The position numbers and the translations under genes are program-made. Shown here one piece after another: positions 12,975-34,535 of a DNA stretch of 64,000 bases. Origin of the DNA: an uncultured Fidelibacterota bacterium (GTDB taxonomy: Bacteria; Fidelibacterota; Marinisomatia; Marinisomatales; TCS55); NCBI GenBank assembly GCA_902615915.1, contig CACMQQ010000006.1:23624-87623 (forward strand), written 5' to 3'. The stretch's first letter is position 1. Every line of letters starts with the position of its first letter. A model generated the notes under the pieces. It worked only from the letters and a program-made list of their open reading frames with translations, was not told the origin of the DNA and ran no database searches.

Positions 12975-15900
12975 TTTATTACTGCAAATTTTCCTAGTTT
13001 TTCATCACCCGTGACAGATGACTTAACATGGTAAATATACATGCCTGCTGCAATTTCTAAACCTTCTCGAGTTAACATATCCCAATGAATTGATCCTCGT
13101 TCTGGTGAATTATTCACATTAATCTCATCAACAAAGACTCCGCTTACAGTATAAATTGATATAACTGATTGAGCTGGAATATTTGTAAAAAGCAATCGCC
13201 TTCTTTGATTAAGAAACTGATTTGAAACAGCAGGCTCCATAACATTTGATGCAACATAAGGATTTGGCACCACCTTTATATCTTTCATCTTGAGCTTAAG
13301 TGAATCAGCATTCAACTCATCAAATGTTTTTACTGTAAATTTAAAGTTATCATTTGTGAAAAATGGCCGTTTGAATTTGACTCTAAATACATCATCAGCT
13401 TTAGGGTATGTGGCGCTTGAAGCAAGAGTAAGATCAATGACAAAAACAGTGCCAGCCCATTTTTTATCAGAGGTTAAACCCCCAACTAAGATACGATCCA
13501 CTGAAGAATCAAAGTCGCCGCTTTCATCCACATCATGGACCACCAAGTCCATCATTTCATAAGATCCATCATTTTTTAAAATTATGTTGTTTTTAACTAC
13601 AAAATTAAATGACTGAGCTAATAGTAATTGATTGAATGGTATCTGTTGGTCTAGTTCGTCTCTAATACCCGATTTATTAATCGTTTGGGTCGTGTAAGCA
13701 GTTTGATCAAAAGTAAACATAACATCATAATCCCATGGCATATAAGCTGATTCACGAAGCGATGGTAAAACTCGCATAATTCCAGATCCTTGTACCCAGC
13801 CAGAATTAACATAATCATAAGCAGGGGATATAAAGGGCTGGTTAATAATCAGCTGTAATCCATCAAAAATATCTGTCTCAATTGCAACTTCATCATTTAA
13901 ATACCAAAAACCCAATGAATCATTTTCAACCAAGTTACTGCCAGTAAATTTCTGAGGGGTTTCACTATAAATCAAACTACCTGAAGATGTGTTATAGACA
14001 TTTATTTCGCTTGTTGAGTAACGAATTCCATATTCATAATTTGGAATCGTATCAATTGTATCAACACCAAAAACAACACTGTACTGATTGTTGGATGTTA
14101 GGCTTGATTGAGCCAAAATCACAGGTTCGATAGTGCCACCGCCAGTTAGATTATTTTCGTCAACTGTAAGCTCAGGGGAGCGATAACCAGCAGCTGGTTT
14201 TGTAGGAGTTACGATTGCCACATTTTTGCCTATCGACCTAACATCTTCTGCTTCATCTAGTTCTATTACCACATTATTCTCAGATGGAGCTATACCAGGA
14301 CCAATATTAGGAGCACCATAATCATAGGCTACTAGACCATAATAGTAAGTTCGCCCATTCATGACAGAATTATCTACAAAAACATGGGTTAAGCCGTTGT
14401 CGGTCCCAAGGTTATATGCGACTCCATTAATTAGGCCAAAATCTGTAAAACCATATCTACCATCCTTAATATCGCATTGAAAGATTGGCTTCATAAATGT
14501 TGGAGTACCATAACCATCGGTTATCACCTCAGCATCAGAAAAATATTTATCTGTTGCTCTGAAGAGCTTATAACCTTCAAAATCATTCACATTTCCCAAA
14601 AAAGGATCTCTGGTTTTGGTATCAGAAATATTATCCCAAGAGAGTACTACTTTGCCGTCACCTGGTGTTGCAGTCAACGTAGGCATTTTTGGCGGCTGGG
14701 CAAATCTGTAGTCCTTCTCGTAAATAACTTGAACAATAGACTTCAATTGGTACAAAGATGGAGCAGTATGCTCGCTAGAATTCAGACCTTCTAATGGATC
14801 AAAGGAATGTAATTCGGCCATCGAAATTCTTTCGGTTTGGCCTTGATAAAGGGGAAATGGACCCGATGCAAAAACTTCAATAAGGTTAGATATATTATCG
14901 ATATATACCTCTAAAACTTTCTCACCAATAAGCTGCCACATGGCTTCATCATTTTTAAACCACCACGTATCGCTTGAGGAGGCATGACTTGGAACTGGAA
15001 ACAAACGAAAAGCGGTCAATCCAATCATATCAGATTCTGATACATCCGTTTCTGCAAAATTAGGCTCAGAGCCAACACCTTCCTTGTAATCGGGTCTATG
15101 ATTACCCTCACCCTCATCAGGGCCAGTATAATTTAATTCTCCTGGTCCAACTCCATCCAGGCCAATATCATCACCAAAATACTCTGAGGCTTGGTAAATA
15201 CCGTCACCATTCAAGTCTTCTCCATCTTCCCAGTCCTGATCTTCATCAGCATCCCAGTGCTCTTTCAAATCACTTTCTTCAAGTTTATAAAATGAAAGGA
15301 AGTCTTGCAAATTGCTTATTCCTTCCGTTGGTCCAATTTTATTAACCGCAATATTATCACGCTTCTCATCAACGAGACCGTCTTGATCATTGTCTATTCC
15401 ATCGTAGGGCACCCCAGGGCTCTCTAAGTAAGCAAAACCCATCGTACCTGTTGGCAAACCACCAGCGCCAATGCCATTGATATCCCAAGAATAGGACATG
15501 TCTAATTTTGTATCAAAAAAAGCAAGTTCATCACTGCCATCATTACCAATCGCATTATCCGCCCAATAACCAAAAGCCACTTCTGTAAGATCATAATCTG
15601 AAATATTTGCAATGTTATACTCCCAAAAGATAGCGTCACGAGCCTGAGGGTTGTTCCATTGGAATCCGCGAGCCTCTACTCTAATTCCTAATCCACCCCA
15701 AGGTTTGCCTTTACCAATGGTTACATCATCTTTTAAATCGCCGATATTTTTACCCTTTCTTGGGTAATATCTCACTCGATCTCCCAATTCAAGATATTCT
15801 TGATCTTGGGCATCATTTGCTACAAAATATGTCTCCATATCAGCATAAATCACACCTCTTCCAAATCTACCATCCCACTCACCTTGCCATTTTGTTTGAT

Positions 15901-16423
15901 TTCCAACAGAGGGCCATCCGTTCAATGGCCATGAATTGGGACGATTACTCATAGCAGGATACTCGCCCGTTTCGTTAAAATAACCAAACACAGGATAGAG
16001 TCCGTACTCAACTGTTCCTGTAGGGTCTACATCCATTTCTTCTCTGTAGCTCGTTTGAAGATAATATAGTTCATGTAGATCTTTTCCAGCTGCTATAATA
16101 GTTGTATCAGTTATCACTTCACTATCAATTAAGTTATTGGGGTCATCCTTGATGTAAACTTTTGCACCTATTAATAAACCTATACCATCAACCATTTTTA
16201 AACCATTTAAATTGTTGGGCCATCTAGATACATTGGACTTAGGCCAATCTGAAAGCTCGGTGGTATTTCTAAAATAAAGAAACACTCTGTTGCCTGTCAT
16301 ATAGCCTTCTCTTTCAGCAGCAATATCACCAGCAGGATCTTCAGGGCCTTCATATACTCTTCCTTGGCCAAACAAAAAGGTTAGGCTGAAAAAGAAAAAT
16401 AAAATTTTAATAATTTTTATCAA
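12971..16423 (-). CDS. Giant T9SS-type surface protein of the glucan operon
   Basis: 1150 residues with signal peptide MIKIIKILFFFFSLTFLFGQ. The middle has Asp-rich dockerin or thrombospondin-like calcium loops (DGIDNDQDGLVDE, DEDQDWEDGEDLNGDG), then an FnIII-like stretch (~600-740, MPTLTATPGDGKVVLSWDN ... GRTYYYGLVAYDYG) and a C-terminal Por-type domain (IKVVPNPYVASN ... AAGMYIYHVKSS ... GKFAVIK). No catalytic motif was recognised. It overlaps the TonB receptor and PorV-like genes by 4 bp each. It occupies the place of SusD next to a TonB receptor, so it may be the surface glycan-capture partner. This is inference. Confidence 0.75.
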   Translation of the reverse strand: MIKIIKILFFFFSLTFLFGQGRVYEGPEDPAGDIAAEREGYMTGNRVFLYFRNTTELSDWPKSNVSRWPNNLNGLKMVDGIGLLIGAKVYIKDDPNNLIDSEVITDTTIIAAGKDLHELYYLQTSYREEMDVDPTGTVEYGLYPVFGYFNETGEYPAMSNRPNSWPLNGWPSVGNQTKWQGEWDGRFGRGVIYADMETYFVANDAQDQEYLELGDRVRYYPRKGKNIGDLKDDVTIGKGKPWGGLGIRVEARGFQWNNPQARDAIFWEYNIANISDYDLTEVAFGYWADNAIGNDGSDELAFFDTKLDMSYSWDINGIGAGGLPTGTMGFAYLESPGVPYDGIDNDQDGLVDEKRDNIAVNKIGPTEGISNLQDFLSFYKLEESDLKEHWDADEDQDWEDGEDLNGDGIYQASEYFGDDIGLDGVGPGELNYTGPDEGEGNHRPDYKEGVGSEPNFAETDVSESDMIGLTAFRLFPVPSHASSSDTWWFKNDEAMWQLIGEKVLEVYIDNISNLIEVFASGPFPLYQGQTERISMAELHSFDPLEGLNSSEHTAPSLYQLKSIVQVIYEKDYRFAQPPKMPTLTATPGDGKVVLSWDNISDTKTRDPFLGNVNDFEGYKLFRATDKYFSDAEVITDGYGTPTFMKPIFQCDIKDGRYGFTDFGLINGVAYNLGTDNGLTHVFVDNSVMNGRTYYYGLVAYDYGAPNIGPGIAPSENNVVIELDEAEDVRSIGKNVAIVTPTKPAAGYRSPELTVDENNLTGGGTIEPVILAQSSLTSNNQYSVVFGVDTIDTIPNYEYGIRYSTSEINVYNTSSGSLIYSETPQKFTGSNLVENDSLGFWYLNDEVAIETDIFDGLQLIINQPFISPAYDYVNSGWVQGSGIMRVLPSLRESAYMPWDYDVMFTFDQTAYTTQTINKSGIRDELDQQIPFNQLLLAQSFNFVVKNNIILKNDGSYEMMDLVVHDVDESGDFDSSVDRILVGGLTSDKKWAGTVFVIDLTLASSATYPKADDVFRVKFKRPFFTNDNFKFTVKTFDELNADSLKLKMKDIKVVPNPYVASNVMEPAVSNQFLNQRRRLLFTNIPAQSVISIYTVSGVFVDEINVNNSPERGSIHWDMLTREGLEIAAGMYIYHVKSSVTGDEKLGKFAVIK

Positions 16424-19089
16424 AAATTCATTCCCAGTGAAAATTTAACGAGGCGAGGTGTCGAGTACATTGAAGGATTTTGTACTCTATCTAAATAGTC
16501 ATTGAAATCGCTTCTATGTCCGGCAAGGTCAGTATCTTTGATAACTGCAGTATAAGCTCGTCCAGTTTGAGAATTCACAAATTCTTCGTTGAGCCTGTCG
16601 AAGAGATTGTAGACAGCTAAGCGCATGTTCAAAACATAATCTTTAAATATAGGCAAATTGTAATATGTCATTAAATCAGCAGAAAACTTTGCAGGCCTAT
16701 AATCATTATTAGGATAAAGATTGATTCTAGATAGCCTGCTTTCTTCGATAGGTGAAAAACTATAAGGAGACCCTGAATTATAATAACCAGTTATAGATCC
16801 TCCAAATGCACCCATGTTATACGCTAAAGTTGCATTAAGGGTGTGTCTTTGATCCCAGCTCATCGGTATAAACCTATTTACCGGGTCCATGCTGGCACCC
16901 GATCTTGAAAAGGTCTGTTGCGGATTATCAGCATTGCCTTTTGTATATTGTAAGGTATAATTAACCCAAGCTGATATTGGTCCAGAATGTGCATCAAGCT
17001 TAACTTCTAACCCTCTTGCATTGCCATAATCCTTATTGCTATACAAACCATATTCTATTTGATTATAAGTACTTATAACTTTGGTGCTTAACAAATTATA
17101 TATATCTCGATAAAATAATGAAACTTCTAAGCCGGTCCCCGGTGTCAGCTCTTGCCATAATCCAAGCTCATATGTAACAGTTTTTTCAGCCTTTAATTCT
17201 GCGTTACCCATTGTTGTTGAGTAATCATTTGGAGCTATTAAAAAAGAATTGTTTTGATATAGAGAATACATGGAGGGCATTTGAAAAAAATGTCCATAGC
17301 TAAAATGTAAAACAGCTGCATTTCCAAGTTGATAAGCTAAACCAAATCTCGGACTAATTTGCACTTGGGGTTCAGCATTAGGGTAATTAGACATCATTGA
17401 GTCTGGTAAACTTAGCTGATTTGCAGGATTCCTTCGGTCCGATGGCATCTTAGTGTTTGGATCAAAGCGATCGTAACGTAATCCAAAATTTATTACCATT
17501 GCATCAAATTCCATCTTGTCTTGCATGTAAAAGGCTATTTCTTTAGGGGCGACTTTATAAACATCTCCATACAGGGTGGAATCACCAAAGATCTTGGGTG
17601 CATAGAGAGTTGCCTCATCAGCAGTTCCAAAGTATTCATTTCTTATTTGATGCCAGGCATTATCAATTTGATAATTTGTCATATTAAAGCCAGTTTTAAT
17701 GCTGTGGTTTTTGTTAACCTGCCAATTGAAATCAAACTTTAGATTTACATTATCAATAGTTCTTTCTTCATGGTTTTTTTCCTGACCACCTGTAAAAAAA
17801 CCAGGACCAAAACTTTCAAGATATTTATCATGAACATAATTGCTATCCAATGGATTTTCATAAAGATAGCCCCCTGAATAATTTTTGGTACTTGATATCT
17901 TCAAATCATAAAACATAGTGTTAGTTAGTAAATGGTTCCATTGAAAAGTAAAAAAATTGGTTTTACCATAACCAGCACCCATTCCATCCGGATTGTATTT
18001 AAATGCATGATTATAGCCATGGCCCTCATCCTGATCAATGGACATCATTGTTGCAAAACGGATTTTATCAAATAAGTGAAAAGAAAGTTTTCCCAATATG
18101 GTAGTTCCATAATAACGATTCATGCTCACATAAGAAGAATCACCTGTATTTTGAGTTACCCAAGACAATGGATCATCACTGTAGTAATTGCTTTGATCCG
18201 TAACGTTAAATCTTCTTATTCCATTTAAATGATTCCTATTAACTTGGTCTCTAACATTAAAGAAGAAGTGAATTTTATCTTTTAGAAGAGGACCGCTTAA
18301 TTGAAATTTGTAGTCTTGATTTCTATTAAATACTAAATTATCTAAACCGACGAAAATATCAGAATTACCTGTAACATATTCAGAAAACCCGGATGAAAAC
18401 GAGCCTTCGAATTTATTCGAACCATCTTTGGTTATTGCATTTACTACACCACTCATTGCTCTTCCATATTCAGCATTAAATGTACCTGTTATAACTTCTA
18501 AATCTTCTACGGCTTCAGGTTCAAGCTGTATAGTGGATGAAGAACCACCGAATACTTCATCAACCTGAACTCCATCAATTAGATACGTTACTTCAGTATT
18601 TCTACCGCCTCTAAAATTGCCATTAACGACTCCCGCCTGCATTCCAACAACTGCTCCAATGTCTTCAATGGGCAGTTTTTGCATTTGATCAGAAGAAATA
18701 TTTTTAATGGTTGAGGTTTGGTCCTTCTTTGTTGTGATTGCATCAACTTCTACAATGACAGTTTCACCTTGTATCACAGTCGATTCTAAGTTTGCATCAA
18801 TAGTAGTAGTTCTGTTGACTGACACTCTTACATTCTCAAGCCTTAGTTGTTTATAGCCAATCATATCCACAACAAGAGTGTAAGTGCCTGGTTTTATATT
18901 GATTATGTAGTAAGAACCATCCAAGTCTGTTGCAGCACCAAAAGCTGTGTTTTGGACTATAACATTAGCTGCAATTAAAGGCTCATTTGTATCTGCATCT
19001 TTTACTACGCCTGATATTTTACCAGTTGTCTGAGCAAGAGACAAAGAAGCGAAAATAATGAATGATAATATTTGTTTTATTTTTTTCAT
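16420..19089 (-). CDS. TonB-dependent outer-membrane receptor with carboxypeptidase-like N-terminal domain
   Basis: 889 residues with signal peptide ending LSLAQ. Residues ~20-105 are a CarboxypepD_reg-like domain (GKISGVVKDADTNEPLIAANV ... DGSYYIINIKPGTYTL). The plug follows (~125-230: LPIEDIGAVVGMQAGVV ... TEVTYLIDGVQVDE ... AEYGRAMSGVVNAITKDG), then a beta barrel ending in aromatic SLGMNF. It heads the operon and probably imports laminarin oligosaccharides using TonB energy. It is shorter than typical Bacteroidota SusC (~1000 residues) and no SusD follows. Substrate is inferred from neighbours. Confidence 0.9.
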   Translation of the reverse strand: MKKIKQILSFIIFASLSLAQTTGKISGVVKDADTNEPLIAANVIVQNTAFGAATDLDGSYYIINIKPGTYTLVVDMIGYKQLRLENVRVSVNRTTTIDANLESTVIQGETVIVEVDAITTKKDQTSTIKNISSDQMQKLPIEDIGAVVGMQAGVVNGNFRGGRNTEVTYLIDGVQVDEVFGGSSSTIQLEPEAVEDLEVITGTFNAEYGRAMSGVVNAITKDGSNKFEGSFSSGFSEYVTGNSDIFVGLDNLVFNRNQDYKFQLSGPLLKDKIHFFFNVRDQVNRNHLNGIRRFNVTDQSNYYSDDPLSWVTQNTGDSSYVSMNRYYGTTILGKLSFHLFDKIRFATMMSIDQDEGHGYNHAFKYNPDGMGAGYGKTNFFTFQWNHLLTNTMFYDLKISSTKNYSGGYLYENPLDSNYVHDKYLESFGPGFFTGGQEKNHEERTIDNVNLKFDFNWQVNKNHSIKTGFNMTNYQIDNAWHQIRNEYFGTADEATLYAPKIFGDSTLYGDVYKVAPKEIAFYMQDKMEFDAMVINFGLRYDRFDPNTKMPSDRRNPANQLSLPDSMMSNYPNAEPQVQISPRFGLAYQLGNAAVLHFSYGHFFQMPSMYSLYQNNSFLIAPNDYSTTMGNAELKAEKTVTYELGLWQELTPGTGLEVSLFYRDIYNLLSTKVISTYNQIEYGLYSNKDYGNARGLEVKLDAHSGPISAWVNYTLQYTKGNADNPQQTFSRSGASMDPVNRFIPMSWDQRHTLNATLAYNMGAFGGSITGYYNSGSPYSFSPIEESRLSRINLYPNNDYRPAKFSADLMTYYNLPIFKDYVLNMRLAVYNLFDRLNEEFVNSQTGRAYTAVIKDTDLAGHRSDFNDYLDRVQNPSMYSTPRLVKFSLGMNF

Positions 19090-19172: not shown

Positions 19173-22100
19173 TTATTTCATTAAAATCATTTTTTGAGTT
19201 TTGGTAAAAGTTGGTGTTTCAAGTCTATAGAAGTAAACACCTGAAGACATTGTTGATGCATTCCACATCACTTTATGTCTACCAACTTGCTTATACTCAT
19301 TTACCAAACTTACCACTTCTCTACCTAAGATATCGTAAATCATTAGTTTCGCTGGGCCAGCAATTCCAATAGAATATTCTATGGTAGTAGTTGGGTTGAA
19401 TGGGTTTGGATAGTTCTTTTCTAATGAAAAGACATTAGCAACAATATCTTGCTCGGTTGAAAGCTTATTGCCATCTTTATTGCCGAGGAAGGTATAAGTC
19501 CAAACCTCAGTTGTTTGATGGGCACGATCATTATCGAGCTTAGATAGTGTTGTAATTGCATCCAATCCTGAACCTGAATCATTATCATGGATCAAAAGCT
19601 CAACCGGTAGCCTGTCGCCAACTTTAGGTACATATAATGAGTCAGGTGTTGAGTTGGTTCCAGCACTAGCATCCCATCCAGATACTTTCATTCTTAGACT
19701 ATCTAGGCTAATTCTAAACTCCACTGTGTAGTTAGCTGTTTGTGTGGTTCCATTATTTGAATGGAAGTAGTGACCATCGCCATTTTTAGCAAGCTCGCCA
19801 CCACCATTATCTGAATTGGCGGCACTTTGTGTAAAGTATAGCTTGTAGTCTGGCTTAGCGCCTCTTTTTAAGCTATTATGCTTTGGCCCTCTAGCATCAT
19901 ATAAGCCTAAACACATTTGCAATGCATCGCCTGTCCACCAACCGCCACCTGTGTTAGCTGTATCGCTAATTACAACATTATCAATAATGTCTGCAGCCAT
20001 ATAGAGCATGCTGTCATCCATTGCAATATAAAATTTTCCACCAGTATCATTTGCATCATCGAATGTACCAGCACCACCGCCGGCAGTTGTAACATTTGGA
20101 GTACCATAGGAGTTCTCAGTAGTTCCTACAATGAATGGTACTACATTTGACCATTCAGATAGATCACCATCAGCCTTAAAATCAGTAGGCGCAGTAGGTG
20201 AAACTACAGGGACACCTCTACCAAAATTAGATACAGGTGATGTGCTTGCTGAAACTGTGCTCTTATTACCGTTCTCATCTGTAGCTACCACAGCATAGTA
20301 ATAACTTCTGTTATAGATATTGGATAGCGGTACTAGAATGTCATGATTTGCAGTCTTCTTACCTTCTTGAACACCAAGCTCTACTAGATCAACTTTATTA
20401 TTTGAAGCCAAAGAATCGGCAACAGTATCTGTAAAAGCAACCTCGCTTGCATAAACATCATAAGTCTCACCGGCTTCTCCAGGCACATCATCCCAAACTA
20501 CTGCATTCAAATATTGACCAGGAATGGCTGTAACGCTTTGTGGTTTTGCTGGTGGAACAAAATCAAATACTGGAGAACCAGTCCATACATCAGTCAAGTG
20601 TATAACTTCTCCGTTAAAACCTGTACCTTGTGCAATAAACTGAGCAACCTTAACCTTTGATGTATCAAAACCTGATGAGGTACCATCTCCATAAACAAAG
20701 TCTTTAAGAGGCAGCTTAACTGTTTGCCATGCACCATCAGCTGTTATGCTGAATTCATGGACTAATTTTCCAGAACCAGCTTCAAACTGAAAGCGTGCAT
20801 TTGTTCCAGAATATTTAGCTGTTTTGTATTTGAATTGTAATGTATCAGTGGGCCATTCAAAAGTCATGTTAGCATTGGGACTTAAATTATAGCCATACCC
20901 TGTTACACCCCAATTATAATCACCAAGAGTCCATTTTAGAGCATTAGTAGCTGAAGTTACGCCTGCTCCAGTAACTAGTTCAGCCGCTGAGCCTCCCCAT
21001 GTGAAAGAACCAGCAGAATTTTTAGGTCCTAATGCTTTGCCATTGAATAAGACCAATGGAATTTTTTTCTGACCTTTGAGCATAATATTATCAAATAAAA
21101 TTGTACCACGGGTTCTGTCGCCATCACCGCCACCACCCATGGAAAATTCTATAGACCAACCTTTTATCTTATCGGTATCAAGTCTTTCATTGCCTGCAAT
21201 TCCTGCCCAGCCAGTTCTATTAAAAGCTGTTGGTGCACCAAATTCACCAGGGTTATTTATAAAAGGAATAGTAATAGTTTTCCAACCACCTGTTGCTGAA
21301 TCAGTAATGCCAGGGGCAAATGAATAATAATACTCACCTAATGCTTGACTACCAGTATAATCATGAGCTCCATCAATAGTACTGTATTCAATTAAGTTAA
21401 ATCTTACAGTAATGCTGCTGGATTGAGTAGCAACGCCAGCGGAATCGACATAATATTGATAAGATAAAGAATCGTATTGAGACCAATCATATATACCGTT
21501 CAAAGTGTCGGGATGCATGTGTTGTAACTTAACATAGCCGCCCCAACCTTCTGTATCATGGGTAGAATAATCTACTCTCATGTAACCATTTGAATAAGAA
21601 ACGTTCGCGTAGGAAGAGTCTTTGCCAGAGCTTCCTTGGTGCTCAAAATGTCCACCCTCAGTTTCATTTGTCGCTTCATCGCCACCAGTGTTGGCCCAAT
21701 ATTGCCAATATGTGGTGTCTTTTGGAAAATCAGCTAAAGAATTGATGACAGGCTTAGCATCCTGGGTCCATGTCCCTGCAGGAATAGTCCTGATGGGCTT
21801 ATCATCAGTAGCTAGGGTACTTTTCCAAACAGTACCATTGAAATTTGTATTGATTGCATTGGGACTACCTTTTCCAGAGCTGATACCCCAAAAACCATCA
21901 CTGTTGTCACCGCCAACATTGTTTTTTGAAAAATCTTTTAATTCCAATGAAGGACCGGTGCCATCATGACCAGAACTAGAAGTGCCCCAACCATTGCCAG
22001 AACCAGATCCATCATCATAATCAACACTGTCAACAGTGACTGAAGAAGAATTAACCAAAGTGATATCTTCACCAGAATTACTTAATGCACCGTTATCGGA

Positions 22101-22424
22101 TCCTCCCCAATCAAAATGAGGGTCAAACCCATTATCAGCTTTAAAACGCACACTATCTCTTGCGAGTATAACGTATGCTCCAGGAGCTATAGTAGCACCA
22201 CTAGGAAAGGTAAAAGTTATACCTTCAACAATTTTCCAGCCACTCATATCTACTGATTCTTGCCCTGCATTAAAAAATTCTATCCATTCACCGCTATCAT
22301 CTGTGTCTGATGCGCCATTGACCTCATAATACGGATTGTACATGATTTCATTAATAACGACCTGTGAATAGGATAACGATACTGTAAATATGGTTAAAAA
22401 TAAAAATCTTAACGTTTTTTTCAT
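19173..22424 (-). CDS. Secreted LTD/CBM multidomain protein with T9SS sorting domain
   Basis: 1083 residues with signal peptide ending VSLSYSQ. Residues ~20-130 match a lamin-tail domain (VVINEIMYNPYYEVNGASDTDDSGEWIEFFN ... GWKIVEG). Beta-rich CBM-like segments follow. An FnIII-like module at ~640-745 (AKPQSVTAIPGQYLNAVVWDD) precedes a CBM9-like module at ~790-975 (FKADGDLSEWSNVVPFIVG). The end is a canonical T9SS type A domain (EKNYPNPFNPTTTIEYSI ... SSGVYFYRLETP ... QKMILMK). No catalytic site was found. It is probably a glycan-binding surface protein for the same beta-glucan as its neighbours. Confidence 0.75.
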   Translation of the reverse strand: MKKTLRFLFLTIFTVSLSYSQVVINEIMYNPYYEVNGASDTDDSGEWIEFFNAGQESVDMSGWKIVEGITFTFPSGATIAPGAYVILARDSVRFKADNGFDPHFDWGGSDNGALSNSGEDITLVNSSSVTVDSVDYDDGSGSGNGWGTSSSGHDGTGPSLELKDFSKNNVGGDNSDGFWGISSGKGSPNAINTNFNGTVWKSTLATDDKPIRTIPAGTWTQDAKPVINSLADFPKDTTYWQYWANTGGDEATNETEGGHFEHQGSSGKDSSYANVSYSNGYMRVDYSTHDTEGWGGYVKLQHMHPDTLNGIYDWSQYDSLSYQYYVDSAGVATQSSSITVRFNLIEYSTIDGAHDYTGSQALGEYYYSFAPGITDSATGGWKTITIPFINNPGEFGAPTAFNRTGWAGIAGNERLDTDKIKGWSIEFSMGGGGDGDRTRGTILFDNIMLKGQKKIPLVLFNGKALGPKNSAGSFTWGGSAAELVTGAGVTSATNALKWTLGDYNWGVTGYGYNLSPNANMTFEWPTDTLQFKYKTAKYSGTNARFQFEAGSGKLVHEFSITADGAWQTVKLPLKDFVYGDGTSSGFDTSKVKVAQFIAQGTGFNGEVIHLTDVWTGSPVFDFVPPAKPQSVTAIPGQYLNAVVWDDVPGEAGETYDVYASEVAFTDTVADSLASNNKVDLVELGVQEGKKTANHDILVPLSNIYNRSYYYAVVATDENGNKSTVSASTSPVSNFGRGVPVVSPTAPTDFKADGDLSEWSNVVPFIVGTTENSYGTPNVTTAGGGAGTFDDANDTGGKFYIAMDDSMLYMAADIIDNVVISDTANTGGGWWTGDALQMCLGLYDARGPKHNSLKRGAKPDYKLYFTQSAANSDNGGGELAKNGDGHYFHSNNGTTQTANYTVEFRISLDSLRMKVSGWDASAGTNSTPDSLYVPKVGDRLPVELLIHDNDSGSGLDAITTLSKLDNDRAHQTTEVWTYTFLGNKDGNKLSTEQDIVANVFSLEKNYPNPFNPTTTIEYSIGIAGPAKLMIYDILGREVVSLVNEYKQVGRHKVMWNASTMSSGVYFYRLETPTFTKTQKMILMK

Positions 22425-26528: not shown

Positions 26529-27977
26529 TTAATAATTGGTTCCATTGCCATCATCACATGGTGGAGGAGTTACTATAGCTCCTGTGTCTGGCTCACCCTC
26601 TCTTAATATGGTAACGCTTCCATCTTCATTCATAGCAAAATCATCAGGCATTAACCAGCGTTCCTGTCCATCTGGTGTTGATACCATTATGGATCCATCC
26701 ATGTCATTTGTCATAAAGACACCACAATCCCCTTGCTGGCCTCGTCCACATTCATCAACCGCCATAGCAATAGCACCAAAAACTTTTCCGGGATCCTGCT
26801 CGCCAGATTCAACTGCAGCCATCATAGCATCTTTTCCAACTTGTACGCACTCATTCCAACTCTCTTCATCATATTCACCGCTTTGTTGAGCTTCTTCTTT
26901 AGATACAGACTCTCCAGCATCAAATGCTGCTTCAAAACTCCCAGTTTGGTCGTATGTTGTGAAGAAAGCTTCTTGCACTGCTGGACTTGGGCCACTAGGT
27001 CCTGTCATACCATCATGATCGCCACCTTCATGGTGCTGACCACCTTCATGATCGCCACCTTCATGGTGCTGACCACCTTCATGATCGCCACCTTCGTGGT
27101 GCTGACCGCCTTCATGATCGCCACCTTCATGATCGCTTTTTTGGTAGCCATCGCAATCACAATTGACATCATTTCCATCAGCATCTTGTGTCCATACTCC
27201 AAATTCATCATCGCTACCTTCGACCATATATCTATCATGACCGCCACATAGAGCTAAACAATTACCATCAAAATGGTTCTTACCGACTGGGGGACCACCT
27301 TGATGATGCTGACCATCTTCATGATATTCTCCTTCGTCTCCTTCTTCTGCCTCATCACCGTACATAGCTCGCATTACTTCGCCAAAAGCTTGACCCGGGT
27401 CCATACCGTTTTGCATAGACTCATTGAAAACCTGCTGAGCTTGGGCTTTTTGCTGTTCAAATTCTTGCTGAGCATATTCATCCCATTGACCACCATCTTC
27501 TTCAATATCTTGCTTAGCAACTTCCATTGCGGCTTCTGCAGCAGCATCAAAAGCTGACTGTGGATCTTCATTAGATTTTATTGCAGTGAAAAAAGCTTGT
27601 TCTTCCGGTGGAAGATCACCAGAACATAGTTGTGCTGCGAACATGGTTGCACCAAAGACATCTCTTGCTTTGTCTTCCATGTTATCAGCTTGTGAATATT
27701 GTATCGCTTCTTGCATCGCCTGAAAAGCTTCGTTCTTGCACTTTTCCCATTCTTCAGCATCATAATCTGGATCATTAGCTTCGGCATCTGCTTTAGCAAC
27801 TGCTTCAGCTGCATTGAATGCGGCATCAAAATTGCCCTGAGTCTGCTGAAGAGTTTGAAAAAACTCTTGAGCGCCTGGTGGCATATCTTGCTCATCATGA
27901 TCATCTGCAAAGACACTATTAAATAATACTAACGATAGGGTTAACGCCCCAGTTAGCATTTTTTTTGTTAACTTCAT
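26529..27977 (-). CDS. Secreted three-repeat protein with histidine-rich and Cys segments (novel)
   Basis: 482 residues, very acidic, with signal peptide MKLTKKMLTGALTLSLVLFNSVFA. I recognise no family. Three ~80-residue helical repeats share FF..(Q/N)...FDAAF(D/N)A..........W/E......A.........VFG..M: residues ~36-118, ~126-207 and ~334-410. The first and third hold a Cys pair (Cys80/118, Cys377/410); the second has lost both. Between repeats 2 and 3 lie CLALCGG and CDCDGYQ and a His tract built of GGDHEGGQHHE units (~282-322). The C-tail has a small beta-like end with CGVF and PPPCDDG. Metal binding in the periplasm or outside is a reasonable inference; the role is unknown. Strong RBS and own terminator. 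Confidence 0.7.
   Translation of the reverse strand: MKLTKKMLTGALTLSLVLFNSVFADDHDEQDMPPGAQEFFQTLQQTQGNFDAAFNAAEAVAKADAEANDPDYDAEEWEKCKNEAFQAMQEAIQYSQADNMEDKARDVFGATMFAAQLCSGDLPPEEQAFFTAIKSNEDPQSAFDAAAEAAMEVAKQDIEEDGGQWDEYAQQEFEQQKAQAQQVFNESMQNGMDPGQAFGEVMRAMYGDEAEEGDEGEYHEDGQHHQGGPPVGKNHFDGNCLALCGGHDRYMVEGSDDEFGVWTQDADGNDVNCDCDGYQKSDHEGGDHEGGQHHEGGDHEGGQHHEGGDHEGGQHHEGGDHDGMTGPSGPSPAVQEAFFTTYDQTGSFEAAFDAGESVSKEEAQQSGEYDEESWNECVQVGKDAMMAAVESGEQDPGKVFGAIAMAVDECGRGQQGDCGVFMTNDMDGSIMVSTPDGQERWLMPDDFAMNEDGSVTILREGEPDTGAIVTPPPCDDGNGTNY
27014..27142 (-). repeat. 33-bp tandem repeat encoding GGDHEGGQHHE
   Basis: CATGATCGCC recurs at 27014, 27047, 27080 and 27113, exactly 33 bases apart, then once more after 15 bases at 27128 as a partial unit. 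There are about three full copies with few substitutions (a GTGGT for ATGGT change in one). In frame on the - strand, each unit adds eleven residues with four His. Near identity points to recent expansion by slippage. Confidence 0.92.
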
Positions 27978-27982
27978 TTCAT

Positions 27983-27989
27983 CCTCCTC
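27983..27989 (-). promoter_or_regulatory. Strong Shine-Dalgarno of the His-rich protein gene
   Basis: GAGGAGG lies 5 bases before the ATG at 27977 on the - strand. It is the closest match to the anti-Shine-Dalgarno consensus seen in the window and supports this start. Confidence 0.75.
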
Positions 27990-28101: not shown

Positions 28102-30225
28102 TTATTTTTTATTTTTTAACAATCTACCAATTTCGGCGGTTTGGCGGTTAAATTCCTTATCAAAAGCAGAATAATAACTATTTATCTCATAAAAATATCT
28201 TGCGGCTTGACGGTCCACAACAAAAGGGCCTTGCCTCAATACTCCTGGAGAAGGAAATAAGATTTCTACGCCAGGTCTAAAATATTGAAGAGACAGTTCT
28301 AAATCTGGATTTAAATCTAGTAATTTTTTTAGAATCAATACCTCGTAAAGTCTTCTTTCGTATTTATCTAATTCATCTTTTGTAATTAAGATAGTAAATA
28401 CATCTTCAGCAGGACTACTGCCCAATTTATTTAGTCGAGCTAATTCATTTTTAAAAGATTCGTTCATTTGTATGTAATTAACTTTAGCAGAAGGTCTCAC
28501 AAATGGCTTTTCTAAAGTAGCTTTGCCTCTAACTGAATATGTAAGCTTTAAGGCTTTTCCATCAGGTATATTTTCAATATCTGGGGCAAGTGGCTCAACC
28601 TCAAATCCCGCTGGGTCATCCGATGATTCTTTAAAATAGATGACTTTTTTAGGATCAATATATTCGAAATAATTAGTTCTATTAATAATATCTAAAAGCA
28701 TTTTCTTAACTAAAACGGCTTCTCCCGGTATTTTCCCTTCAAGTAAGCTTTTATAGGGCTCTTTCACCAATAAAGTTTTATCAGTCAATACCCTATTATC
28801 GACCTCAGCTATGATATTTTGAAAAACTGGGCTTTCATTTATAAATGAAAGATCAAATACATCTTCTCTTTTGACTCTGTAAGAATTGGGAAACGAAAGA
28901 TTATCAACCTGATCAAACCGTTTATCATCTTGAGGAATGACTCTACTGAAATTATCTTCCTCTTCAGTGATAACGTGAGGCGTTATTACTACAATTACCT
29001 CTTTCTTTGCATCTTCGGTTCCACGAACTGAAAAGAAAAGTTTTAAAAACGGAATTTGAGAAAGCAAAGGAACCCCGCCGGTATTCTTGCTATCTTTCTC
29101 ACTTATAAGTCCACCTATTATAAATGGGGTATTATTAGCAACGCGAACAAACGATTGAACTTTTCTATTATTGATTATCGGTGCAGATTCAACATCTCCT
29201 CCCGTTGCACCAATTCTTTCTTCTGTATCGCTGATAATTGTCTCAACTTGAATGGTAACGCGCGCACCGTTCTCACTAATCCTAGGTCTTAAATTCAAAA
29301 CAATACCAACTGGCACGTAATCCACTCCACGACTAGTAGAAATTTGAGTGTCCGTAACCTTTACAATGGGGATTTGCTGGCCGATTTGAATTCTTGCTTG
29401 TCTGCCATCCAAAACAAGGACTGATGGCTTAGATAAAATATTTGCAGCTTTATTACTAACTAAGGCCTCGATATTTGCTCTAAAATTAGCGCCACTGCCT
29501 AAAAGAGTTCTGTCTAGGACCATCGTAAATGGAGATATTGATCCTCCCTCTGGAGGAGGAAAGTCTGCTGTAAAACCTGGTGCAGCGCTAGAAAAATCAA
29601 CTCCTAATTCATCCAGTTTATCCGAATTTATTTCTAATACTAAAGCTTCAATAGCGATTTGACTAGCAGGAACATCAATCTTATTTTGAATAAGATCAAG
29701 TAATTCTGCGTATGAACCTGTATCCCCTGGTTTATGACCAACCATTAATCTTTGTAGTGGTTCACCGCTTGTGGTATTATTTAAAACAACCCCGCCCAGA
29801 TCTACACCCAAAGGAGTGCTCTTAGAAGACTTTTTGCTTGTGCTTTTTTCAACCAAAGATATTGTTTCCGTATCTGGTAATTTTATTATAACAGGTAGTG
29901 CTCCTGGGGCATCCAAACTTGCAGGTTTATTAGAAAAGACAGGGGTAAAATTATTTTCACCAGCAATTTCACCTTTAGTGGATCTGTATTCAACTACATA
30001 ATAACCCATTGTTTTTAGTGTTGCTAAGGCACGGTCAGTTTGAATATAGCTTAACTTTATCACTTTGTATTCAAGGCTGCGTAACGATCCTGCAGGACCT
30101 GTAGGTAGATTTGATGGTCTAATAACAGGGGTCGGGGGTCTTCTTAATGCAGATGATGGAGGTCTTTGTTGGCCTGAAACAAAATCAAATATGAAGATAG
30201 TAATAAGTAAATATGGATATCGCAT
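28102..30225 (-). CDS. Secretin-family outer-membrane pore protein (GspD/PilQ-like)
   Basis: 707 residues with signal peptide ending FDFVSGQ. An N-domain-like segment (EYKVIKLSYIQTDRALATLKTMGY) is followed by VPASQIAIEALVLEINSDKLDELGVDF and the secretin core: NILSKPSVLVLDGRQARIQIGQQIPI, VGIVLNLRPRIS, FIIGGLISEKDSKNTGGVPLLSQIPFLKLFF and EVIVVITPHVI. About 220 extra residues follow the pore domain, ending in a helical tail of unknown role. Secretins form the outer-membrane gate of type II/III secretion or type IV pili; no other component of these is in the window. The gene start overlaps the upstream lipoprotein stop (TAATG). Confidence 0.9.
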   Translation of the reverse strand: MRYPYLLITIFIFDFVSGQQRPPSSALRRPPTPVIRPSNLPTGPAGSLRSLEYKVIKLSYIQTDRALATLKTMGYYVVEYRSTKGEIAGENNFTPVFSNKPASLDAPGALPVIIKLPDTETISLVEKSTSKKSSKSTPLGVDLGGVVLNNTTSGEPLQRLMVGHKPGDTGSYAELLDLIQNKIDVPASQIAIEALVLEINSDKLDELGVDFSSAAPGFTADFPPPEGGSISPFTMVLDRTLLGSGANFRANIEALVSNKAANILSKPSVLVLDGRQARIQIGQQIPIVKVTDTQISTSRGVDYVPVGIVLNLRPRISENGARVTIQVETIISDTEERIGATGGDVESAPIINNRKVQSFVRVANNTPFIIGGLISEKDSKNTGGVPLLSQIPFLKLFFSVRGTEDAKKEVIVVITPHVITEEEDNFSRVIPQDDKRFDQVDNLSFPNSYRVKREDVFDLSFINESPVFQNIIAEVDNRVLTDKTLLVKEPYKSLLEGKIPGEAVLVKKMLLDIINRTNYFEYIDPKKVIYFKESSDDPAGFEVEPLAPDIENIPDGKALKLTYSVRGKATLEKPFVRPSAKVNYIQMNESFKNELARLNKLGSSPAEDVFTILITKDELDKYERRLYEVLILKKLLDLNPDLELSLQYFRPGVEILFPSPGVLRQGPFVVDRQAARYFYEINSYYSAFDKEFNRQTAEIGRLLKNKK

Positions 30226-30722
30226 TATCTTGGAACCACTAGCTTTATGGGCAATGATACATTAAGCCCATCAAATGAAGCAGTAATCAAGCCATTTTCC
30301 TTATAATTATAATAATAACCACCTGAGCTAGTACTGTAAGTTGATGTAGGCACAAAGGAAGCTAAAACCTCAAGTCTAGATTTTGGTTCATCGCTTATAG
30401 ATGAAACACTAAAACTGGATGATGAAACTACACCGTAAGAATGCATATCAAGCGTCCCGCCAACTGCATCCATCTTCATCAACATTGTCACTGCAGATGA
30501 TAATGAGTCCTTATGGACCCTTCGATCTAAATATACTGTAACCTTTGAAACGCTATTTAAATAGACTATATCGGGATTGATCTTTAAGGTTAATTCAAAG
30601 TTATCATTTTTAGCAGTATCTTTCTTTTCTGGTTCTAAAATATCGTTACTGCAAGAAATTGAAAAAAGACCAATTAAAAAATAAAGAATATTTTTTCTAA
30701 GAATATTGTTTATGGCTAACAT
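30225..30722 (-). CDS. Lipoprotein coupled to the secretin (possible pilotin or accessory)
   Basis: The ORF track starts at 30791. I prefer the ATG at 30722, which gives MLAINNILRKNILYFLIGLFSISC, a proper signal with lipobox FSISC, ~165 residues. The remainder is beta-rich (FELTLKINPDIVYLNSVSKVTVYLD ... SLPIKLVVPR) with a Ser/Tyr-rich middle (SSGGYYYNY). I recognise no family. One-base overlap with the secretin gene suggests a joint function, such as a pilotin that guides secretin to the outer membrane; this is inference only. Confidence 0.55.
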   Translation of the reverse strand: MLAINNILRKNILYFLIGLFSISCSNDILEPEKKDTAKNDNFELTLKINPDIVYLNSVSKVTVYLDRRVHKDSLSSAVTMLMKMDAVGGTLDMHSYGVVSSSSFSVSSISDEPKSRLEVLASFVPTSTYSTSSGGYYYNYKENGLITASFDGLNVSLPIKLVVPR

Positions 30723-30917
30723 GTAAAATTTGAATATTATATAATATAGCATTATATGAACAATATACTTTACATGGAATAGATATATCATCTTAAATAA
30801 TTTTACAAAAAATAATAAATACTATATAAAAGACGTTCTGTGTTAAAATCTAACGATGATATTTAACAAAGTATTTACTAATTATCATTAATGCAAAATT
30901 ATTGAAATAACAAATAG

Positions 30918-31364: not shown

Positions 31365-34300
31365 TTGAAAACTCTAAAAAAAATTGTCAATATTAAACCT
31401 GGTGAAGGAAAAATGGTTCTTCTATTTTTCCTATTTTCCTTCTTTGTGGTTGCAATGGGTCTTGTTGCCAAAACTGCAAGAGATGCATATTTTTTAACCG
31501 ATTACGACAAAAGCTTGCTTCCGCTGATGTTTGTTGTTATAGCAGTAATCATTGCACCTTTTTTGGTAGTTTATACTAAAATATCAAAAAAAATCCCTCA
31601 GAAAACTTTATTTGTATTGACTTGCATAATTTTCGCTTCGACCTTTATAATGCTTCAGCCTGTAATGACTGGGTTTATCATTCCTTTGACCTATGTTTGG
31701 GTTGAAATAGTTGTAGCTGTCATGCTAATTCAATTTTGGACCATTGCTGGAGAATCATTCCAACCTCAACAAGCAAAGCGATTATTTGGCATTGTCGCTG
31801 GTGGGGGGTCGCTCGCCGTAATGCTCATTGGCATTAACTTAAAACCATTTGTTGCCTATTTTGGATCGGGCATGCTTCTTTTTCTAGCAGCTTTCTTTCT
31901 TGCTGTAGCTACCATATTAGGGATTAATTGTCTTAATTACATTCAAAACGAATCAACATCAAAGCCGCTAAAGAACAAAGCAAAAACAATAAAAAAGAAA
32001 AAACAAGCTGATCCTTTCATTGTGGGAATCGGTAGCATCGTTGCTTTTTCAGCAGTAGTAACTGTTCTTGTCGACTACCAGTTCAAGATTATGGCGAGTA
32101 GTGCATACCCAGATTCAAGTGACCTTGTTTCTTTTTTTGGAACATTCTATGGCATATCAGGCGCAATGTCCATCATTATGCAGTTTTTCATCACCGGTCC
32201 AATTCTATCACGATTCGGTATCTTGATAGGTTTATTAATTCTACCATTTTTTCTCATTGCAGGTTCAGCATCATTTTTTCTTGCCCCCATGGTCTTAAGC
32301 GCAAGTTTTGCTAAATTTTCTGATCAAACTTTTAAATTCACAATCAATAGTTCTTCATTAGAGCTTTTGTGGCTACCTGTTCCAGCTAATATTCGCAAAA
32401 CTATAAAACCTCAAATTAGTGGAACTGTAAAATCAGTTGCTGAGGGTGTAGCAGGACTTGGGACTTTCTTTCTTGTAAAATTCATTGAACTGCAATTTTT
32501 GAGCTTGATATCTATTGGAGCTATAGCAATATGGATTCTTACTGCATTCAAAGTAAAAACGAATTATGTCAAACAACTTCAAACAGCGATAGCTAAAAGA
32601 GAGATTAATTTTGAAGAGCTAAATATTGATGTTCAGGACGCTGCAATGGTTAAAACCATTGAAGATACGTTAAGCTCAAATGATGAAATAAAACAATTAT
32701 TCGCATTAGAGATAATTGATGGCCTTTCACTTTCTCCCTGGAAGAAAACAATAAAAAAACTTTTTAATAATGGATCAGTGGAATTAAGAAAACGAATTTT
32801 AGAGTTATCATGGGATGAAATTGATATTATAGCTGACGAGGACATCATTCAAGCTATCCACAGAAACGATAATGTTTCCCCGGACGCCATTATTGCTGCT
32901 GGAAAAAGAAGAATTGAAAAAACATATCCAGATATTGAAAAATACTTAACTAATAAAAATGAAGAAATCGTTGCCGCATCAGCAGCCTCAATTTTATTCA
33001 TTAATACAGGTCCAATTGTCGAAGCAGAAAAAATACTCAATGATTTAATCTCTTCCTCTGATGAAAAAACTGCTGGAATAGCACTTAGAAGGCTCACTGA
33101 TAACAAGACAATCTTAACAAACAAAAAATTGATAAAATTTCTCAAATCTAATAGTGATTACATAAGCAATGTAGCCTTATCCATTGCTGAAAAAAGACAA
33201 GATGAAGAATTAATTCCATCTATCATGTCAAATCTCAATCTTCCTAAAACGGCACTTCAGGCACGACAAACTCTAAAAAAGTATCAAGATACAATGATTA
33301 TTGATCATTTTGAAAAGTCACTATCAACTGAGGAAACAAAGCGAAAGCTATATCTTGGTATTTTGTACGCTATCAGGGAATATCCATGTGATAGATCTAA
33401 AGAGATACTACTTAGTAAAATGGATGATGATGATCAAGAAGCATACAATGAAATTGTTAATTCTTTAATTGCTATTGCTCGATTGCATCCCATTCATGAG
33501 AAAAAACTTGAGGATATTTCAAACAAAATACAAACTACTGCAAACAAACTTTATTACAATTACGAACTGATCAAGCTGCTTCCAGGTAATGAGCAAAGTT
33601 TTTTGATGAAAGATTACTTAACCAATGAAATTCAAAATACGCTTCCTACTTTACTAAAACTTGGTGTTATGGATAAACCTCAGACCCCTATAGAATCATA
33701 TATCAATACAATCAGAACTGGTGATAATGCCAAGCTGCCATTTCTTCTAGAGTTCTTTGAAAATATTTTCTCCAAAAGAGAGCGCGCTGTGATTAATCCC
33801 CTAATTGAAAAAATAAGCATTGAGGAAAGAAGTGATATTGGCCATGAATATTTTGACAATTTACCTAAAGATCTGGACAAGGAAATCTCAAACCTTATCT
33901 TTTCAAAAAACAAATGGGAATCTGCAATATCATTAGATTATTGTATTCAATCAAACAAGGAAGAGATTTTGAAAAATTTAAAATGGGAACAATTGCCAAG
34001 ATCAAGAGCAAATAAAGAAATTATTATGAGAATAGCCAAAGACAAAGACTCCCTAAAAAAGCTTGTTCCATCAAAGCTATTTGAAACAAATTCAAAGGAA
34101 TTAACCATGTATTCAACATTAGAAAAAACGATTATCCTTAAATCTGTTGAGCTCTTTAAATCTATACCTGCTGAAAACCTATCAAAGGTTGCCCAAATAA
34201 CTGAAGAGGTTAAATACAGCAAAGATGAGCCCATCTTCTCAGAAGGTGATTATGGTGACTCTCTCTTCATTGTTGTAGATGGTGAGGTTAAGATACATAA

Positions 34301-34535
34301 AGGTAAACAGGAGCTGGCTTTACTTAAAAAAGGAGCATGTTTAGGTGAGATGGCTCTTTTGGACGATGAACCAAGATCGGCAGATGCAACAATAACAGAA
34401 GAGTCAACCTTGTTTAAAATTGAAAGAGAGGGTTTCTATGAAGTAATGGCAGGACAATCCGTTATTATGCAAGGCATCATAAAACTTCTAACCGGCAGAC
34501 TTCGCGTGGCAAATGAAAAATTAATGTCAAAATAA
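31365..34535 (+). CDS. NTT/MFS nucleotide-transporter-like membrane protein fused to HEAT-like repeats and a cNMP-binding domain
   Basis: 1056 residues from a TTG start. Residues ~15-400 hold about 11-12 membrane helices like ATP/ADP antiporters (MVLLFFLFSFFVVAMGLVAKTARDAYFL ... QFWTIAGESFQPQQAKRLFGIVAGGGSLAVMLIG). Residues ~420-910 are soluble helical repeats, probably HEAT-like. Residues ~920-1050 are a Crp-type cyclic-nucleotide-binding fold (FKSIPAENLSKVAQI ... GDYGDSLFIVVDGEVKIHKG ... LGEMALLDDEPRSADATI). The PRSADA cassette resembles the cAMP-binding PRAA motif. It may be a ligand-gated transporter or a membrane sensor. Transport activity is not shown by the sequence. Confidence 0.75.
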   Translation: MKTLKKIVNIKPGEGKMVLLFFLFSFFVVAMGLVAKTARDAYFLTDYDKSLLPLMFVVIAVIIAPFLVVYTKISKKIPQKTLFVLTCIIFASTFIMLQPVMTGFIIPLTYVWVEIVVAVMLIQFWTIAGESFQPQQAKRLFGIVAGGGSLAVMLIGINLKPFVAYFGSGMLLFLAAFFLAVATILGINCLNYIQNESTSKPLKNKAKTIKKKKQADPFIVGIGSIVAFSAVVTVLVDYQFKIMASSAYPDSSDLVSFFGTFYGISGAMSIIMQFFITGPILSRFGILIGLLILPFFLIAGSASFFLAPMVLSASFAKFSDQTFKFTINSSSLELLWLPVPANIRKTIKPQISGTVKSVAEGVAGLGTFFLVKFIELQFLSLISIGAIAIWILTAFKVKTNYVKQLQTAIAKREINFEELNIDVQDAAMVKTIEDTLSSNDEIKQLFALEIIDGLSLSPWKKTIKKLFNNGSVELRKRILELSWDEIDIIADEDIIQAIHRNDNVSPDAIIAAGKRRIEKTYPDIEKYLTNKNEEIVAASAASILFINTGPIVEAEKILNDLISSSDEKTAGIALRRLTDNKTILTNKKLIKFLKSNSDYISNVALSIAEKRQDEELIPSIMSNLNLPKTALQARQTLKKYQDTMIIDHFEKSLSTEETKRKLYLGILYAIREYPCDRSKEILLSKMDDDDQEAYNEIVNSLIAIARLHPIHEKKLEDISNKIQTTANKLYYNYELIKLLPGNEQSFLMKDYLTNEIQNTLPTLLKLGVMDKPQTPIESYINTIRTGDNAKLPFLLEFFENIFSKRERAVINPLIEKISIEERSDIGHEYFDNLPKDLDKEISNLIFSKNKWESAISLDYCIQSNKEEILKNLKWEQLPRSRANKEIIMRIAKDKDSLKKLVPSKLFETNSKELTMYSTLEKTIILKSVELFKSIPAENLSKVAQITEEVKYSKDEPIFSEGDYGDSLFIVVDGEVKIHKGKQELALLKKGACLGEMALLDDEPRSADATITEESTLFKIEREGFYEVMAGQSVIMQGIIKLLTGRLRVANEKLMSK

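What the first reader, a model, noticed from the sequence alone, without database searches (positions are those of the whole stretch)
26529..27977. Undescribed His-rich three-repeat secreted protein
Three ~80-residue helical repeats, Cys pairs in repeats 1 and 3 but lost in 2, CxxxC-like and CDC motifs, and an expandable 33-bp repeat coding GGDHEGGQHHE. Its strong RBS and own terminator suggest high expression. I recognise no family. A zinc, copper or nickel buffer or a metal-triggered adhesive are possibilities.
Basis: partly seen in the sequence, partly recalled or inferred. Interest (0 to 1): 0.7.

Follow-up and report, generated by a model that had tools for sequence, protein, structure and literature searches.

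The report
Shuffled-module secreted protein beside motorless secretin
The histidine-rich protein is one version of a secreted, probably ion-binding protein that marine bacterial relatives rebuild from a shared kit of interchangeable pieces, always directly behind the gene for an outer-membrane pore (a secretin) that, in many of these genomes, has none of the motor parts such pores normally need; this suggests an undescribed way to export or display a variable surface protein.

Summary
In detail: a 482-aa secreted, very acidic protein with three ~85-residue four-helix repeats, paired cysteines in repeats 1 and 3, a CxxxC...CDC module and a 33-bp His-coding repeat array. No Pfam or NCBIfam family, and no PDB relative or fold, was found. 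The gene is the last of a lipoprotein - secretin - mosaic cassette. In 29 of 29 testable loci with a secretin >=55% identical, a mosaic gene follows. These genes are built from at least nine interchangeable modules: two helical domains, EF-hand pairs, C2H2-like fingers, Cys/His ribbons and others. Twenty-three complete genes show 21 architectures. One 231-bp EF-hand module is ~95% identical between genera whose secretin genes are 63.5% identical, with flanks no more alike than unrelated segments. The helical module occurs nowhere else in 245 genomes of the phylum. Ten genomes, including this one, hold this single secretin and no T2SS/T4P/Tad ATPase, platform protein, prepilin peptidase or Zot. 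Best reading: the mosaic is the diversifying, ion- or disulfide-stabilised cargo or surface ligand of an orphan secretin. Linkage and mosaicism are shown; export through the secretin and metal binding are inferred. Sequences are MAGs; no function was tested.

The parts
26529..27977 (-). mosaic secreted protein gene (482 aa, pI ~4.05)
27906..27977 (-). signal peptide, residues 1-24, no lipobox
   Evidence: sequence; start MKLxKxxLxG...FA(Q/D) shared with most relatives of the same family
27982..27989 (-). Shine-Dalgarno GAGGAGGA, 4 nt before ATG
   Evidence: sequence; the same stretch reads 'KEDEM/KEDDM' in frame before the ATG of many relatives
27624..27884 (-). HEL module, repeat 1 (residues 32-118), Cys pair 80/118
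27357..27614 (-). HEL module, repeat 2 (residues 122-207), no Cys
27150..27290 (-). MODE module (residues 230-276): NCxALC...Y...W...NCDC; identical to sister genome at protein level (dN 0)
27009..27131 (-). 33-bp tandem repeat coding GGDHEGGQHHE, 3.7 copies; inter-module linker; the sister genome has a whole extra module (HEL2) inserted here
26748..26987 (-). HEL module, repeat 3 (residues 331-410), Cys pair 377/410
26550..26732 (-). CTERM module (residues 416-476), predicted beta, C418/C474
26481..26511 (.). terminator-like hairpin downstream of the mosaic gene
28102..30225 (-). orphan secretin (707 aa), constant partner; ~260-aa C-terminal extension at 28105-28893 (residues 445-707)
   Evidence: Secretin PF00263 E 4e-39; GspD/PilQ/InvG folds; >=55% identical orthologues in 29 of 29 testable loci precede a mosaic gene
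30225..30791 (-). lipoprotein (lipobox ...FSIS|C), overlaps the secretin start; first gene of the cassette

Best explanation
The gene encodes the variable partner of an orphan outer-membrane secretin. SHOWN by sequence: (1) the order lipoprotein - secretin - mosaic protein is conserved across several genera in two families of one order; (2) the lipoprotein and secretin are kept, while the mosaic gene is assembled from a locus-specific pool of at least nine small modules that are gained, lost, duplicated and occasionally exchanged between genera at linker boundaries; (3) many of these genomes hold no other secretin and no T2SS/T4P/Tad motor, platform or prepilin peptidase. INFERRED: the mosaic protein enters the periplasm by Sec, folds into a chain of small disulfide- or ion-stabilised domains (EF-hands for Ca, C2H2 and Cys/His ribbons for Zn, the His array here for Zn/Ni/Cu), and is released or displayed through the dedicated secretin with the lipoprotein as assembly or anchoring partner. 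With no ATPase, its exit would have to be driven by folding or ion capture in Ca-rich seawater rather than by a piston. The MODE (or KYK) module would be the recognition part and the other modules the diversified outward face, for example for attachment or evasion of phages or grazers.
For: Linkage: 29/29 testable loci with secretin >=55% identical; more distant secretins (37-43% identical) lack the mosaic. Module architectures: 23 complete genes, 21 architectures. Module exchange: the 231-bp EF module of G018 (g5) and G034 (g6) is 95.2% identical in DNA while their secretins are 63.5%, and the flanks fall to the level of unrelated segments. Between the window genome and sister G001 the secretin is 94.6% identical and a whole HEL2 module is present or absent. 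HEL occurs only at this locus: 22 hits in 16 of 245 genomes (the G025 hit is a fused ORF beside the conserved SDR gene). Orphan status: G000, G001, G013, G015, G021, G024, G028, G029, G033 and G034 have exactly one secretin, no T2SSF, no T2SSE, no A24 peptidase and no Zot, while the T2SSE, T2SSF and A24 searches do find these parts in relatives and controls. Ion-binding and disulfide modules: EF-hands in 12 and C2H2-type fingers in up to 7 of 28 members; HEL cysteines always both (13) or neither (10), Fisher p 9e-7. MODE has dN 0 with high dS between the two sister genomes.
Against: No experiment. Passage through the secretin rests on gene linkage, signal peptides and the lack of other secretin clients. 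No energy source is known, whereas the described secretin systems are powered. The window's own protein carries no intact EF-hand or zinc finger, so its metal binding rests on the His array and MODE. MODE is absent in g7/g8, where KYK is usually found instead, and G015 has neither, so no single module is universal. Genomes are incomplete MAGs; absence is argued from ten of them together. The 13-versus-10 cysteine test ignores relatedness of the copies.
Confidence: 0.5

Rival explanations
1. The mosaic protein stays in the periplasm or inside the secretin channel as a plug, gate or assembly factor of the secretin, and the channel serves other cargo.
For: Invariant adjacency to the secretin; no anchor and no T9SS tail in the window protein; one highly constrained module, MODE.
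Against: A gate or plug should fit a conserved pore, yet length (287-554 aa) and architecture vary freely while the secretin changes slowly. DxDxDG, C2H2 and His-rich modules look like outward ion-binding rather than a ring-fitting part.
Confidence: 0.2
2. A secreted or periplasmic Zn/Cu/Ni buffer; linkage to the secretin reflects only shared expression.
For: His array GGDHEGGQHHE, acidic composition, EF-hands and zinc fingers in relatives.
Against: Several relatives have low His and few metal modules (G015: HEL2-HEL, 1% His); modules are shuffled instead of metal sites being conserved. Perfect adjacency to one secretin clade is unexplained.
Confidence: 0.13
3. A Ca-dependent adhesin, matrix or S-layer-like component whose export route is another system (for example T9SS) and whose neighbour secretin is incidental.
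For: The window encodes proteins with T9SS-type C-terminal tails; acidic, EF-hand-rich composition suits seawater.
Against: No Por_Secre_tail or CHU_C hit in any of 28 members at E 0.01; adjacency to the secretin in 29/29 loci.
Confidence: 0.12
4. Assembly artefact: module shuffling produced by mis-joined repeats in MAGs.
For: All genomes are MAGs, with N runs in some copies (G013, G088, G092); G025 shows a suspicious fusion at a GGPGGP linker.
Against: Open reading frames, module boundaries and conserved flanking genes recur independently in 29 loci; the exchanged EF module is flanked on both sides by genus-typical modules; HEL has no other source in the genomes.
Confidence: 0.03

Closest known systems
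T2SS secretin GspD / T4P secretin PilQ (Pfam PF00263)
   Same: secretin domain and fold; upstream lipoprotein reminiscent of a pilotin
   Different: NCBIfam GspD 158 bits against cut-off 351 and PilQ 115 against 284; no ATPase, platform or prepilin peptidase in ten genomes; ~260-aa C-terminal extension; variable mosaic gene attached
Filamentous-phage secretin pIV
   Same: secretin outside T2SS/T4P; matched by fold (7ofh)
   Different: no Zot/pI ATPase; chromosomal, with conserved flanking genes across genera
EF-hand (PF13499/PF13202) and C2H2 zinc-finger families
   Same: relatives of the window protein carry these domains
   Different: the window protein itself matches none of them
Repeat- or module-variable bacterial surface proteins (own knowledge, not tested)
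   Same: conserved ends or partner with variable middle, tandem-repeat copy variation
   Different: here whole unrelated domain types are interchanged in a gene tied to an orphan secretin

Membership tests
Type II secretion system | secretin domain in outer-membrane channel | tested here: met
Type II secretion system | GspE-type ATPase (PF00437) | tested here: not met
   absent in own genome and nine further cassette genomes with this single secretin; controls and relatives positive
Type II secretion system | GspF platform (PF00482) | tested here: not met
Type II secretion system | GspD score above curated cut-off | tested here: not met
   158 bits against 351
Type IV pilus / Tad | assembly ATPase, platform, prepilin peptidase | tested here: not met
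Filamentous phage export (pI/pIV) | Zot-type ATPase (PF05707) | tested here: not met
   0 of 11 genomes
EF-hand / C2H2 proteins | Pfam match in the window protein | tested here: not met
   (met in relatives only)
Mosaic family described here | adjacent to this secretin; signal peptide; two or more modules of the pool | tested here: met
Metal-binding protein | measured affinity for Ca, Zn, Ni or Cu | not testable with these tools
   needs purified protein
Secretin-exported cargo | secretin-dependent surface or extracellular localisation | not testable with these tools
   needs genetics

The most novel reading that the evidence does not exclude
A motor-less outer-membrane secretion or display system: a stand-alone secretin with a lipoprotein exports a dedicated protein that is continually rebuilt, by recombination within a locus-specific module pool shared across genera, from ion- and disulfide-folded domains; extracellular folding and ion capture pull the chain out.
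Probability: 0.3. Interest if true: 0.88.

Novelty: new variant of a known kind. Interest (0 to 1): 0.72.

Why it matters
Secretins are described as parts of powered machines (T2SS, T3SS, T4P/Tad, filamentous phage; PMC7545093, PMC6668835). Uncultured marine genomes that keep a secretin under strong constraint with none of the T2SS/T4P/Tad motors, beside a gene that reshuffles EF-hands, C2H2 fingers and new helical domains, would raise two testable questions: how a secretin can work without an ATPase, and how bacteria diversify a surface protein by exchanging whole domains at a single locus. It would also give a mosaic reservoir of small ion-dependent domains.

Tried and rejected
(a) PDB sequence hits to designed Cake/Scone propellers on residues 416-448: short beta stretch, no stretch passing on its own, discounted. 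(b) Foldseek of the mosaic model: best E 0.29, designed helical proteins at the top, no homology. (c) NCBIfam 3-oxoacyl-ACP reductase and ComGE hits at E 0.08-0.1: chance. (d) Foreign origin of the gene: GC 44% against 35% for the window, but GC3 0.269 matches the neighbours (0.23-0.30), so GC follows amino-acid composition. (e) Phage origin: no phage record matches, no Zot, conserved flanks. (f) HEL fused to a FecR-like lipoprotein in G025 (L032): it lies next to the conserved SDR gene, with ambiguous bases at a GGPGGP linker, probably an assembly join; not used as evidence. (g) Positive selection on residues: none seen, dN/dS well below 1 in all modules; variation is at module level. (h) Literature searches for orphan secretins, Marinimicrobia/SAR406 secretins and secretins with EF-hands or domain shuffling gave nothing relevant in the open library.

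Full report
WHAT IS THERE. The ORF at 26529-27977 (-) encodes 482 residues with an N-terminal signal peptide, very acidic (22% D+E, 4% K+R, pI about 4.05). The three ~85-residue repeats are real: alignment scores stand 7.7-16.9 SD above shuffles. AlphaFold2 gives each as a four-helix domain (repeat 3 pLDDT 91-98; repeat 2 mostly 86-96). Cys pairs are present in repeats 1 and 3 and absent in 2, as stated. The 33-bp array (27009-27131) codes GGDHEGGQHHE and lies between two folded modules. Nothing in Pfam or NCBIfam, no relative in the PDB by sequence (spurious designed-protein hits only) and no PDB fold (best E 0.29).

RELATIVES. A search of 61 related genomes found homologues in 17, mostly partial matches. 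Reading those genes in full showed why: they are mosaics. Pfam agrees on the known ones: EF-hands in 12 and C2H2-type fingers in up to 7 of 28 members. Twenty-three complete genes show 21 architectures. MODE or KYK, never both, is present in nearly all, with one gene (G015) having neither. The HEL cysteines are both present (13 copies) or both absent (10), never one (Fisher p 9e-7, relatedness ignored), which points to a disulfide.

THE SECRETIN CASSETTE. All the homologous loci with a detected secretin lie directly downstream of it. In the window this is 28102-30225 (-), a Secretin-domain protein whose fold matches PulD, GspD, PilQ and InvG and which has a ~260-residue C-terminal extension. 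Starting instead from the secretin in 130 genomes of the order gave 31 loci at >=55% identity. Two end at a contig edge; in the other 29 the mosaic gene follows on the same strand (28, G092; in G085 one small gene lies between). Upstream, a lipoprotein overlaps or abuts the secretin start. More distant secretins have no mosaic gene behind them: 39-43% identical in g4 and in the second copy of G043, 37-43% in families f16 and f17. The cassette is chromosomal, with shared flanking genes (an SDR gene downstream; a transporter-like gene upstream in several genera).

ORPHAN SECRETIN. In ten genomes (G000, G001, G013, G015, G021, G024, G028, G029, G033, G034) this is the only secretin, and there is no T2SS/T4P/Tad ATPase, no T2SSF platform, no A24 prepilin peptidase and no Zot. 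Completeness runs from 76 to 95%, four of them at least 90%. G035 fits except for one A24 hit. Relatives such as G005, G010, G012 and G043 do carry such parts at other places, with separate secretins, so the searches work and the cassette is independent. ATPase, platform, pilin, secretin and prepilin peptidase are the core set of the type IV filament superfamily (PMC6668835); secretins are otherwise known from T2SS, T3SS, T4P and filamentous phage (PMC7545093). T3SS genes were not searched.

HOW THE VARIATION ARISES. (i) Between the window genome and its sister G001 (contig NHGT02000016.1, bacterium TMED144) the secretin is 94.6% and the SDR neighbour 94.3% identical, but G001 carries an extra HEL2 module exactly at the His-array linker, and the array differs in copy number. 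(ii) A 231-bp EF-hand module of G018 (genus g5) and G034 (genus g6) is 95.2% identical in DNA although their secretin genes are 63.5% identical; similarity on either side drops to that of unrelated stretches (0.44/0.43 against 0.42-0.51), and each copy is flanked by its own genus's modules. (iii) G012 has two near-identical EF pairs in tandem. (iv) HEL was found in 16 of 245 genomes of the phylum, 22 copies, all at this locus, so there is no dispersed donor in the genome; modules must come from duplication within the gene or from the same locus of other cells. Residue-level change is purifying in every module (MODE dN 0; repeat 3 among the fastest, dN/dS about 0.12). GC3 is native.

MECHANISM. 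Shown: linkage, mosaicism, module exchange, signal peptide, missing secretion motor. Inferred: Sec export, folding into beads on flexible Gly/His/Pro linkers, passage through or display at the secretin, ion- or disulfide-dependent folding as a common property of the pool, and an outward role (attachment, or evasion of phages or grazers) as the reason for diversification. I give this mechanism 0.5. The main rival is a periplasmic gate or plug (0.2); a plain metal buffer is less likely (0.13).

COMPARISON AND NOVELTY. It is not a T2SS, T4P/Tad or filamentous-phage secretin system by tested defining parts, though the secretin belongs to that fold family; hence 'new variant of a known kind', with the stronger reading as the novel case. 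Literature searches in the open library found nothing comparable, which is weak evidence of absence.

LIMITS. The genomes are draft assemblies, apparently MAGs; several genes contain runs of N or end at contig edges, module boundaries and names are mine, the phylum is not named by the tools (a marine lineage with T9SS-type tails; Marinimicrobia/SAR406 is my guess), and within-species variation could not be examined.

Noticed in passing
L032:11882-15181 (genome G025): A FecR-like lipoprotein reading frame runs into a HEL module at a GGPGGP linker, next to the SDR gene that normally follows the mosaic; ambiguous bases suggest an assembly join, but a real fusion is not excluded.
   Followed up: partly
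L088 (G089 contig C9), 3853-4946: Secreted bacterial mosaic with seven tandem C2H2-like zinc fingers followed by MODE; eukaryote-like finger arrays in an exported bacterial protein.
   Followed up: partly
L091, L093, L089 upstream of the secretin: The cassette lipoprotein grows from ~160-190 aa in most genera of the window's family to 340-460 aa in two genera and 650-790 aa in family f8; a copy in G088 carries 'DxDGDGDxDxFxG' (FG-GAP-like) repeats. Size change of the second partner is unexplained.
   Followed up: no
window 19173-22424 (-), 7649-9622 (-): Lamin-tail and GH5 cellulase proteins with Por_Secre_tail: T9SS-type secretion signals in the same genome.
   Followed up: no
window 12971-19089 (-): TonB-dependent receptor with carboxypeptidase-regulatory domain (16420-19089) beside an 1150-aa protein (12971-16423) with no Pfam match at E 1e-5, near carbohydrate-active genes (GH5 at 7649-9622).
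   Followed up: no
window 31365-34535 (+): 1056-aa MFS-like membrane protein with C-terminal cyclic-nucleotide-binding domain; a similar gene lies at the same place in several related genera.
   Followed up: no
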